Shown one piece after another: positions 1,691-47,379 of a stretch of 47,379 bases of DNA. The translations under genes were made by a program, and so were the position numbers. The notes beneath the pieces were generated by a model that worked only from the letters and a program-made list of their open reading frames with translations, searched no databases and was not told where the DNA came from. Every line of letters starts with the position of its first letter. Position 1 is the stretch's first letter. The stretch is from Candidatus Caccalectryoclostridium excrementigallinarum (GTDB lineage Bacteria; Bacillota; Clostridia; Christensenellales; UBA3700): contig DVNJ01000017.1 of assembly GCA_018714485.1 (NCBI GenBank), positions 1 through 47,379 on the forward strand, written 5' to 3'.

Positions 1691-1855
1691 TTATTTCTTT
1701 CTCTATGCGGTCTTTTTCCTAAAAACCTTTTAGATTCTCAGTTCAAACGTAATATACAAGAAAACATTTACCATGCTCTTCTCGTATGATATCGTTTTGA
1801 TCGTCTACTTTCTATGCTATGCAGTTGTGAATGTGCAAGAGACGTTTCCGCCTCG
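1691..1855 (-). other. Leader/spacer between tRNA-derived repeats and 23S rRNA
   Basis: This is AT-richer spacer RNA just upstream of the 23S gene on the minus strand. Directly after the last CCA (1856-1858) is a hairpin of GAGGCG, GAAA loop and CGTCTC, matching hairpins that follow the CCA of the upstream units. A TTTGAACTGAGAATC stretch resembles the spacer/antitermination region that precedes rRNA in Firmicutes. No gene is seen. Confidence 0.5.
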
Positions 1856-1934
1856 TGGTGGGCTAAAGTGGACTCGAACCACCGCCATAAATGGCTTAGG
1901 TGCGGTCGGACTTTATCCCGAGGCTCTCGCCTCA
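1856..1934 (-). repeat. tRNA-Ile-derived repeat unit 1 (79 bp), possible tRNA-like RNA
   Basis: On the minus strand the last 29 nt are identical to the 3' end of the neighbouring tRNA-Ile: last T-stem/T-loop bases, acceptor 3' strand TTAGCCC, discriminator A and CCA. The first 49 nt are not tRNA-Ile. They hold a hairpin GAGGC-GAGA-GCCTC, then GGGATAA, which could pair with TTAGCCC at 6 of 7 positions. A small hairpin GCCAT-TT-ATGGC follows, and the unit then joins the T-arm. The unit could therefore fold as a reduced tRNA-like molecule with an acceptor, one hairpin, a T-arm and CCA. Function is inferred only. Confidence 0.85.
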
Positions 1935-2012
1935 TGGTGGGCTAAAGTGGACTCGAACCACCGCCAAAATGGCTTAGGTGCGGTCGGACTTTATCCCGAG
2001 GCTTTCGCCTCA
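1935..2012 (-). repeat. tRNA-Ile-derived repeat unit 2 (78 bp), possible tRNA-like RNA
   Basis: This is a tandem copy of the unit at 1856-1934, directly 3' of the real tRNA-Ile CCA on the minus strand. It differs at a few sites: the GNRA loop is GAAA instead of GAGA, and the small hairpin is GCCA-TTT-TGGC instead of GCCAT-TT-ATGGC. Both changes leave the stems intact. The last 29 nt are again identical to the tRNA-Ile 3' end including CCA. Confidence 0.85.
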
Positions 2013-2089
2013 TGGTGGGCTAAAGTGGACTCGAACCACCGACCTCACGCTTATCAGGCGTGTGCTCTAACCAGCTGAGCTATTAGCCC
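2013..2089 (-). tRNA. tRNA-Ile (anticodon GAT)
   Basis: The 77-nt cloverleaf on the minus strand has acceptor GGGCTAA/TTAGCCC, anticodon loop CTGATAA with anticodon GAT, T-loop TTCGAGT and an encoded CCA at 2013-2015. It lies 7 nt downstream of tRNA-Ala in the same transcript and upstream of the 23S gene. Its 3' 29 nt are duplicated twice immediately downstream. Confidence 0.98.
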
Positions 2090-46073: not shown

Positions 46074-46163
46074 AATAAAAAGTCAATGTGTAAAATCTAT
46101 AATTTTAGGTTGTTATCAAAACTTTGATAGCTATATTGCAAAACTACGATATTGGAGAAAAAT

Positions 46164-46541
46164 ATGGATATTCAAATAATTATTCGATGGGCTTTCGGAA
46201 TTTTCGTTGCAGGGATTTTGTTTATCGGAGGAGTTGTCCTTCTCTTTGCGAAAATCAAAATAAATTATTCAATAGGGTATGTCAGCAAATTGTCTGTAAA
46301 AAATGAATTTAACTGGAAATATGCGAATAGAGTTTTTGCATTATTATTACTTATTGTTGGATTAATTATTGCGATCGAGACAATTATTATAAATTTGTTA
46401 AAATCGGATATAAAAATTTTCTTGCCCGTTATTATATGCAGTTTATTTTTAGGATTAGTATTATGTGCTTGGTTACCTAATTTTTGTTTGAAAAAATATT
46501 TAAACAAAAACAGAAAAGAAGGAGGGGAAAACGGGATTTGA
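46164..46541 (+). CDS. SdpI/YfhL-like small membrane protein
   Basis: The 125-aa protein has three hydrophobic helices (about 4-28, 55-78 and 86-108). Between the first two is an SdpI-like motif region (YSIGYVSKLSVKNEFNWKYANRVF). SdpI-family proteins include the immunity protein to the SdpC toxin of B. subtilis. The start ATG at 46164 is 6 nt after GGAG. An in-frame TTG at 46152 is less likely. The AT-rich composition points to a different origin from the core genes. No toxin gene is seen next to it. Confidence 0.65.
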   Translation: MDIQIIIRWAFGIFVAGILFIGGVVLLFAKIKINYSIGYVSKLSVKNEFNWKYANRVFALLLLIVGLIIAIETIIINLLKSDIKIFLPVIICSLFLGLVLCAWLPNFCLKKYLNKNRKEGGENGI

Positions 46542-46635: not shown

Positions 46636-46778
46636 GTAAAAGCCATGTTGATCTCGTTTCCGAGTCAAGTAAAAGTCAGACCACTTCGGGATATAAACTA
46701 CGGTATCGAATATGATGCCGGTAACACCTTTGATACACAAATTAAAGAGCCGCGAGTTCAAACGCGACTCTGCTATGT

Positions 46779-47250
46779 CGGAGGGATTCGCCTTACAGCG
46801 AACGGACAGTAAATCTATATTCGGACAGACAAACTTTCGTCTCCGTTCGCGTGCAGCCCGTGTTATGCGCCCGCGCATATCACGGAGGTGCACGCCCTCG
46901 GAGGGATCCGCCTTACAGCGAACGGACAGTAATCTATATTCGGACAGACAAAATCTCGTCTCCGTTCGCGTGCAGCCCGTGTTATGCGCCCGCGCATATC
47001 ACGGGAGTGCACGCCCTCGGAGGGATTCGCCTTACAGCGAACGGACAGTAAATTTATGTTCAGACAGACAAGATCGCGTCTCCGTTCGCGTGCAGCCCGT
47101 GTTATGCTTCCATCATATCACGGTGGTGCACACCCTCGGAGGGATTCGCCTTACAGCGAACGGACAGCAATCTAAGTTCGAAGACAAGATCTCGTTTCCG
47201 TTCGCGTGCAGCCCGTGTTATGCTTTTAGCATATCACGGAGGTGCACGCG
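46779..47250. repeat. Four tandem ~119-120-bp structured repeats
   Basis: Units start at 46779, 46899, 47018 and 47137. Each opens CGGAGGGATTCGCCTTACAG and contains the inverted pair GCGAACGGA / TCCGTTCGC about 36 bp apart. A long interrupted palindrome follows (in unit 1, 46851-46893): GTGCA, CCGTG, TATGC paired with GCATA, CACGG, TGCAC. Units differ mostly in loops and stay paired in the stems. The array ends just before an IS30-like element. Period and spacing do not fit CRISPR. Confidence 0.88.
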
Positions 47251-47251
47251 G

Positions 47252-47379
47252 TGAATTATACTTTCAAGTGCAACACTTTAACAAAAAAAAGAGTTCATAC
47301 AAAAACTGCTGTATAATGAAGTTAGCAAAAAAAATAAAAAGACAGGAGTTAATGTATGAACTATACACATCTTAGCATA
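47252..47379 (+). mobile_element. Left end of an IS30-family-like insertion sequence (cut by window edge)
   Basis: The AT-rich end with AAGTGCAACACTTTAACA resembles terminal sequences of IS30-type elements in Firmicutes. It is followed by a -10-like TATAAT at 47312-47317 and the start of a transposase-like ORF. Only the left end is in the window, so the family call rests on the first eight residues and the end sequence. Confidence 0.5.
47356..47379 (+). CDS. IS30-like transposase, first 8 codons
   Basis: ATG at 47356 follows AGGAG by 8 nt and encodes MNYTHLSI. This matches the usual opening of IS30-family transposases (M-YTHL-xxE). The rest lies outside the window, so whether it is intact is unknown. 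Confidence 0.5.

What the first reader, a model, noticed from the sequence alone, without database searches (positions are those of the whole stretch)
46779..47250. Four-copy array of ~119-bp units, each with two paired stems kept despite sequence change
Each unit carries GCGAACGGA/TCCGTTCGC and a long interrupted palindrome around GTGTTATG...CATATCAC. Loops change between units (GCGC-CC-GCGC, CTTCCAT, GC-TTTTA-GC) while stems persist, as expected if the folded form is selected. Coding is unlikely since the frame shifts between units. It lies beside an SdpI-like gene and an IS30-like element. It could be a structured RNA array, a protein-binding array, or a transposon target.
Basis: partly seen in the sequence, partly recalled or inferred. 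Interest (0 to 1): 0.7.

Follow-up and report, generated by a model that had tools for sequence, protein, structure and literature searches.

The report
Tandem hairpin units at tRNA ends
The four repeats belong to a family of tiny gene-less DNA units that sit in tandem right behind tRNA and tmRNA genes in certain gut Clostridia, each unit carrying a folded partial copy of its own host tRNA, which looks like an undescribed kind of tRNA-targeting insertion.

Summary
In detail: four ~119-bp units (46778-47249) with stems that covary strongly. The unit is not local. A covariance model finds it in 12 of 46 genomes of the family and 14 of 347 drawn from the order. Of 66 arrays, 43 have a tRNA or tmRNA gene on the same strand at most 260 nt upstream, and 15 of the other 23 run into a contig end. 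Hosts are Ser, Leu, Ala, Val, Glu, Thr, Arg tRNAs and tmRNA. Each unit contains a sense copy of its host tRNA's T-arm, split in the T-loop by a conserved insert (TGCACGC...CTGTAAGG), preceded by an antisense copy, so the unit folds on itself. The match to the unit's own tRNA beats 5000 of 5000 permutations. Empty-versus-occupied comparisons show that units enter at the tRNA 3' end: the native tRNA end and terminator reappear beyond the last unit, in the window too (tRNA-Ser(GGA)). An IS30-like element cuts the window array. No Rfam family, plasmid, phage or viral contig matched; the paper searches found no description. Best reading: gene-less integrative units with a folded, tRNA-mimicking recombination site. 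The enzyme is unknown, so the mechanism is inferred.

The parts
47137..47252 (-). unit 1 (first on the minus strand), its 5' arm cut by the IS30-like element
   Evidence: cmsearch R1 101.5 bits; IS end identical in 4 places from 47250
47018..47136 (-). unit 2
   Evidence: cmsearch R1 109.4 bits
46899..47017 (-). unit 3
   Evidence: cmsearch R1 113.7 bits
46779..46898 (-). unit 4
   Evidence: cmsearch R1 108.3 bits
47149..47210 (-). P3 insert of unit 1 (TGCACGC...CTGTAAGG), splitting the tRNA T-arm copy
   Evidence: motif positions, host-tRNA comparison
47030..47094 (-). P3 insert of unit 2
46911..46974 (-). P3 insert of unit 3
46791..46855 (-). P3 insert of unit 4
46779..46790 (-). last sense copy of the tRNA-Ser T-loop/T-stem 3' strand (CGAATCCCTCCG)
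   Evidence: sequence
46746..46771 (-). native intrinsic terminator of tRNA-Ser(GGA), displaced to the far end of the array
   Evidence: terminator scan; aligns with the flank of the tRNA-Ser(GGA) gene of G002
47250..47379 (+). end of an IS30-like element that interrupts the array (contig ends here)
   Evidence: identical 130 bp in 4 places of the genome; a full element with a 324-aa ORF at L036:10-984
46152..46541 (+). SdpI-family gene, ordinary neighbour of tRNA-Ser(GGA), not part of the unit
   Evidence: PF13630 E=9.3e-10; a homologue lies beside tRNA-Ser(GGA) in G002, L027:6578-6949

Best explanation
The units are gene-less integrative repeat elements that target tRNA and tmRNA genes. Shown: on the tRNA's strand an occupied locus reads tRNA - terminator - [A: antisense of the host tRNA's T-arm, often also acceptor, CCA and trailer] - loop P2 - [S2: sense T-stem 5' strand] - P3 insert (TGCACGC...CTGTAAGG) in place of T-loop bases about 52-55 - [S2: T-loop from C56, T-stem 3' strand, often acceptor and CCA], repeated in tandem. 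Shown at two loci: the native tRNA end and terminator lie beyond the last unit. Inferred: a unit enters by site-specific recombination inside the tRNA 3' end, brings a new tRNA end and terminator so that the tRNA stays intact, and pushes the old end outward; repetition builds arrays. Inferred, less certain: the unit's recombination site is the folded single strand, in which A and S2 pair to imitate the double-stranded T-arm of the target gene with P3 sticking out, as integron attC sites imitate attI. That would explain why both arms follow the host tRNA and why the helix is kept by compensatory changes. The recombinase acts in trans and was not identified.
For: Adjacency: 43 of 66 arrays have a same-strand tRNA/tmRNA at most 260 nt upstream and 15 of the other 23 hit a contig end. 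Host match: in 41 tRNA-unit pairs the two S2 halves agree with their own tRNA at 5.20 of 6 and 9.59 of 10 positions, against 2.40 and 6.68 for other tRNAs; permuting tRNAs gave at most 444 against 606 observed, 0 of 5000. The antisense arms also fit the own tRNA better (n=38, p about 1e-5 and 2e-6). Insertion: the window flank below the array aligns with the continuous tRNA-Ser(GGA) downstream flank of G002; the far tmRNA terminator of G000 scores 36 and 34 against the native tmRNA terminators of G024 and G017, in neither of which R1 found a unit, while its near terminator scores 13 and 11. Copy number: 4 units in L101 and 1 in L102 at the same tRNA-Glu locus. Movement between loci: the window units match the T-arm of tRNA-Ser(TGA) (CACGGG) yet end in the flank of tRNA-Ser(GGA). 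Covariation: including pairs that are not tRNA-derived.
Against: No recombinase tracks the units. Tyrosine recombinases (PF00589) are missing from this 96%-complete genome; reverse transcriptase (57), serine resolvase (82) and Y1 transposase (83) are each missing from several unit-bearing genomes; no tyrosine-recombinase ORF was found near arrays. Only two occupied/empty comparisons were clear; the distal tmRNA terminators of G001 and G007 did not clearly match a native one (best 10 and 19). In L101, L102, L092 and L099 the T-loop of S2 differs from the tRNA, so exchange there would lie 3' of the T-loop, in the T-stem/acceptor/CCA block. The extended antisense of the trailer is found in 17 of 41 near trailers against 4 of 27 far ones (p=0.02), so it is not universal. 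Homologous recombination could produce copy-number change and movement.
Confidence: 0.5

Rival explanations
1. Passive tRNA-end satellite: one ancient tRNA-targeted insertion left a palindromic repeat that since spreads, changes copy number and tracks the tRNA by homologous recombination, gene conversion and replication slippage, without a dedicated enzyme.
For: No enzyme co-occurs. Copy number differs between close relatives. Orthologous tRNAs are occupied in several species of the genus. Arrays lie at rearranged spots.
Against: Gene conversion with the tRNA would erase the P3 insert and does not explain compensatory pairs outside the tRNA-derived part, nor the presence of one conserved P3 behind 15 tRNA/tmRNA kinds.
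Confidence: 0.25
2. Remnants of larger tRNA-targeting elements: each unit is the leftover attachment end of an element with a large serine or tyrosine integrase whose genes were lost, or a cis-mobilisable companion moved by such elements.
For: A large serine recombinase ORF abuts a tRNA 3' end and then a unit in L091, and a recombinase remnant lies before the units of L027. In Dehalococcoides, serine-integrase islands enter the middle of the ssrA T-loop in tandem, some without integration genes (PMC3146451, passages).
Against: In both loci the serine-recombinase element lies before the array as a separate insertion. PF00239 is absent from unit-rich G001 and from G003, G029 and G037. Attachment sites are not known (recalled) to carry antisense arms that follow the host tRNA.
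Confidence: 0.15
3. Functional RNA: read-through transcripts of tRNA operons contain the units, which act as antisense or decoy RNA for the tRNA 3' end.
For: Strong covariation; antisense of the host tRNA; units are kept for long times.
Against: Terminators lie between tRNA and first unit; no minus-strand promoter match inside the window array; no Rfam family; unit number and presence vary between close relatives.
Confidence: 0.08
4. Retro-insertion: the antisense arm is a cDNA of the tRNA transcript, self-primed at its terminator hairpin, that was inserted behind the gene.
For: In several loci the antisense of trailer, CCA and acceptor follows the terminator U-run directly.
Against: RVT_1 is absent from unit-bearing G000, G001, G002, G003, G007, G016 and G023; extended antisense is not universal.
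Confidence: 0.02

Closest known systems
Dehalococcoides ssrA-specific genomic islands (serine integrase DsiB; PMC3146451, passages read)
   Same: Insertion in the T-loop region of a tmRNA gene, duplication of its 3' end, tandem accretion, some islands without integration genes.
   Different: Those are islands with genes at one tmRNA gene; here the units are about 120-240 bp, gene-less, at many tRNAs, with an antisense arm and a conserved P3 insert.
Integron cassette arrays with attC sites (PMC8946536, passages read)
   Same: Tandem arrays; a site of low sequence but high structural conservation that folds as a single strand and could imitate a double-stranded target; variable end loops.
   Different: No integron integrase found, no cassette genes, target is a tRNA/tmRNA gene instead of attI, and the folded arms copy the host tRNA.
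tRNA-targeting integrative elements and phages in general (PMC8371274, passages read)
   Same: tRNA 3' end as target, gene restored by the incoming copy.
   Different: No integrase or cargo; a single repeat family with matched arms at many isoacceptors and tmRNA.
REP/BIME and MITE-like palindromic repeats (recalled)
   Same: Small, gene-less, palindromic, intergenic.
   Different: Bound to tRNA 3' ends, host-matched; Y1 (RAYT-type) transposase absent from G000.

Membership tests
tRNA-targeting integrative elements | sits at the 3' end of a tRNA/tmRNA gene on the same strand | tested here: met
   43 of 66 arrays, 15 of the other 23 at contig ends
tRNA-targeting integrative elements | tRNA 3' end duplicated, native end and flank displaced to the far side | tested here: met
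   tRNA-Ser(GGA) and tmRNA comparisons; unclear for tmRNA of G001 and G007 in the same call
tRNA-targeting integrative elements | encodes its own integrase | tested here: not met
   units carry no long ORF conserved between arrays; no tyrosine recombinase near arrays
integron cassette array | tyrosine recombinase IntI encoded in the genome, next to attI | tested here: not met
   no PF00589 in G000, incomplete assembly; none next to arrays
integron cassette array | imperfect palindrome that folds as a single strand | tested here: met
integron cassette array | attC R/L box consensus and strand-specific recombination | not tested
   consensus not searched; recombination needs an assay
integron cassette array | cassettes carry genes | tested here: not met
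   no gene between units in the arrays read
Dehalococcoides-type ssrA islands | serine integrase in or with the element | tested here: not met
   PF00239 absent from unit-bearing G001, G003, G029, G037; two loci have one as a separate insertion
REP/RAYT system | Y1 transposase in the genome | tested here: not met
   PF01797 absent from G000, G003, G004, G007 and others
Rfam structured RNA | match to a curated covariance model | tested here: not met
   only rRNA/tRNA at gathering scores in the window; four other loci at E up to 5 gave tRNA matches and below-threshold matches, sX4 across the tRNA region among them
IS end | unit occurs only with an IS | tested here: not met
   the IS end occurs 4 times, in 2 of them at a unit; the arrays printed lie behind tRNA genes

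The most novel reading that the evidence does not exclude
A new class of mobile DNA: a cassette of 120-240 bases without genes whose single strand folds into a replica of its target tRNA gene's T-arm, so that one recombination system can retarget to many tRNA and tmRNA genes by copying the host tRNA into both arms of its own attachment site, an integron-like system that uses tRNA genes as its landing sites.
Probability: 0.3. Interest if true: 0.9.

Novelty: new variant of a known kind. Interest (0 to 1): 0.75.

Why it matters
tRNA genes are the favourite landing sites of mobile DNA, yet each known element is tied to one or few tRNAs (recalled). A gene-less repeat that is found at many tRNAs and at tmRNA, and that carries folded sense and antisense copies of the particular host tRNA, would show how site specificity can be rewritten by copying the target. 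It also gives a direct test of whether folded single-strand recombination exists outside integrons. Practically, these arrays break assemblies, carry extra terminators behind tRNA genes, and lie next to defence-like genes.

Tried and rejected
RNA array with its own promoter: the TATAAT seen upstream of the window array belongs to the IS30-like end. Coding repeat: the 180-aa frame is not kept in other arrays. Gene cassettes: genes beside arrays (for example L036 HEPN, L091 and L027 recombinase) are separated from the unit by a tRNA 3'-end remnant and look like separate insertions. Reverse transcription, serine recombinase and Y1 transposase as a resident enzyme: absent from several unit-bearing genomes. 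G087/L031: chance match inside a gene that reads like dnaA (recognised by eye, not tested), dropped. L161 and L163 (Massilia, Lysobacteraceae): GC-rich matches without an adjacent tRNA, dropped as chance. Of the 39 stretches, 18 were used, 2 were dropped as chance, and 19 were left out as records of genomes already counted (judged from contig lengths and accession prefixes). In one search three pairs (L075, L077, L096) were parsed at a wrong motif and were kept in the count; they were left out. L097, L104, L105 and L152 were not among the 41 pairs. Carriers: no match in 72,556 plasmids or 50,697 phages, none in viral contigs. Literature: searches found no description of such units; the library holds open-licence papers only.

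Full report
OBSERVATION. The array is real: 46778-47249, period 119, four copies. Read on the minus strand each unit folds; the z-scores of three window units as single-stranded DNA are -3.2, -4.3 and -2.1. The IS30-like element starts at or before 47250: the last 130 bases of the window occur identically in four places of the genome.

IT IS NOT LOCAL. The same genome has further arrays on other contigs, and relatives have more. I aligned 19 units of 8 arrays, wrote down a structure (P1, P2, P3) and counted pairs: 91.2% of cells paired, 15 of 31 pairs with changes on both sides, 0 of 500 shuffles as high. A covariance model R1 from it found units in 12 of 46 genomes of the family, 5 of 6 in the window's own genus, and in 14 of 347 genomes drawn from the order. 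Over 48 sources it gave 96 matches at E up to 0.1, including two reverse-strand matches and several partial ones. On these, 26 of 31 pairs have changes on both sides (an alignment fitted to the model). An exact pattern scan of the collection of 84,980 species genomes gave 39 stretches; apart from two chance hits and one contig binned as Rickettsiales they carry Clostridia-type or unnamed bacterial titles (Christensenellaceae, Candidatus Alloclostridium, rabbit and ruminant gut MAGs, one titled Acetatifactor). Viral contigs gave none, nor did plasmids and phages by blastn with the window array.

IT SITS BEHIND tRNA AND tmRNA GENES. ARAGORN calls and a tally show 43 of 66 arrays with a same-strand tRNA or tmRNA at most 260 nt upstream, usually 30-70 nt: Glu, Leu, Ala, Ser, Val, Thr, Arg tRNAs and tmRNA (5 arrays). 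Of the other 23, 15 have at most 300 nt of sequence upstream (contig end). The rest include arrays cut off by mobile elements (L027, L091) and L169, whose upstream stretch shows a truncated tmRNA end by eye.

EACH UNIT COPIES ITS OWN tRNA. Reading on from the tRNA: CCA, intrinsic terminator, antisense T-arm (A), loop P2, sense T-stem 5' strand, insert P3 (TGCACGC...CTGTAAGG), sense T-loop from C56, T-stem 3' strand, often acceptor and CCA, next terminator, and so on. P3 stands where tRNA bases about 52-55 would be. In 41 tRNA-unit pairs the sense halves agree with their own tRNA at 5.20 of 6 and 9.59 of 10 positions (other tRNAs 2.40 and 6.68); 0 of 5000 permutations reach the observed total (606; maximum 444). 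The antisense arms also prefer their own tRNA (n=38). Complementarity to the tRNA trailer is strong in 17 of 41 near trailers and 4 of 27 far ones (p=0.02); it is a feature mostly of the window's genus.

INSERTION SITE. In G002 the tRNA-Ser(GGA) gene is followed directly by its terminator and, further on, an SdpI gene. In the window the same terminator and flank follow unit 4, aligned from the last tRNA bases onward. The tRNA-Ser(GGA) gene itself lies on contig C9, separated by several kb with genes of a separate insertion, one of them HEPN-type, and a Ser(GGA)-type unit that another IS30-like copy cuts. The window units match tRNA-Ser(TGA), not tRNA-Ser(GGA), in the T-stem 5' strand, so units of one tRNA-Ser gene ended up at another. 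For tmRNA the far terminator of G000 scores 36 and 34 against the native terminators of G024 and G017, where R1 found no unit, while the near terminator scores 13 and 11. For G001 and G007 the far terminators had no clear native counterpart (best 10 and 19). At one tRNA-Glu locus two close relatives have four units and one. In L101, L102, L092 and L099 the T-loop of the unit differs from the tRNA, so the exchange there would lie in the T-stem, acceptor or CCA.

MECHANISM. Shown: location, host match, conserved P3 ends, compensatory pairing, displaced native ends at two loci, copy-number change. Inferred: integration by site-specific recombination at the tRNA 3' end, with the incoming unit supplying a new tRNA end and terminator. 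Inferred with less certainty: the active site is the folded strand, in which A and S2 form a duplex equal to the target's T-arm with P3 protruding. Integron attC sites work in that way, recognised as folded single strands with unpaired features (PMC8946536, passages). T-loop insertion, tandem accretion and gene-poor companions have a precedent in Dehalococcoides ssrA islands with serine integrases (PMC3146451, passages).

ENZYME. None found. PF00589 is in 45 of 46 family genomes but not in the window's genome, which is 96% complete; PF00078, PF00239 and PF01797 are each missing from several unit-bearing genomes. Thirty-one tyrosine-recombinase ORFs used as queries found no relative in the array loci held. 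The one enzyme class that could still be resident everywhere is the Xer-like tyrosine recombinase of about 355 aa; its naming is recalled, not tested.

OTHER READINGS. A passive satellite driven by homologous exchange is the strongest rival. An RNA function is less likely because of terminators, lack of a minus-strand promoter match in the window array and lack of an Rfam match. A transposon-target role is real but secondary: of the four IS30-like ends two abut units and two abut other hairpins.

NOVELTY. Not in Rfam; searches of the open-licence library found nothing like it (listings only, apart from passages of PMC5217627, PMC8371274, PMC3146451 and PMC8946536). PMC5217627 describes a short palindromic motif about 10 bp behind tRNA genes in Methanopyrus, which is different. 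As an object the family is new; as a kind I file it beside tRNA-targeting elements, with a real chance that the mechanism is new.

Noticed in passing
window 1849-2041 (minus strand, behind tRNA-Ile 2013-2089): About 2.5 copies of a 78-bp repeat that contains the 3' half of tRNA-Ile (T-arm, acceptor, CCA) between tRNA-Ile and 23S rRNA; another duplication of a tRNA 3' end, without the P3 insert.
   Followed up: partly
L036:1089; window 47250; L032 and L033 near base 130: IS30-like element: 2 of 4 copies sit inside the hairpin units, 2 beside another G+C-rich hairpin, so the IS seems to prefer hairpins.
   Followed up: partly
L007:5053-6870, L077:3-3898, L036:1367-2041, L069:2996-4195: Genes beyond arrays look like defence or toxin-antitoxin genes: GmrSD, a UvrD helicase with an OLD-type ATPase (Gabija-like, recalled), HEPN, AAA_14/DUF4143.
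   Followed up: partly
G000 whole genome: No PF00589 match at all, although 45 of 46 family genomes have one; either an assembly gap or a real loss of the Xer-type recombinase.
   Followed up: no
L028, L088 against L030, L073: The tRNA-Ser(CGA)-type array lies in opposite orientation relative to the same transporter-like gene (MKLSVKEK...), suggesting inversions with breakpoints at arrays.
   Followed up: no
L104 and L105 between tRNA-Glu(TTC) and the first R1 match; L097 behind tRNA-Glu(TTC): Further diverged palindromic copies of tRNA-Glu ends without the standard P3, perhaps a sister type of the unit.
   Followed up: no
L091:4444-4995: A large-serine-recombinase-like ORF (recognised by eye) runs into a tRNA 3' end followed by a unit, resembling the overlap of dsiB with ssrA repeats in Dehalococcoides.
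   Followed up: partly
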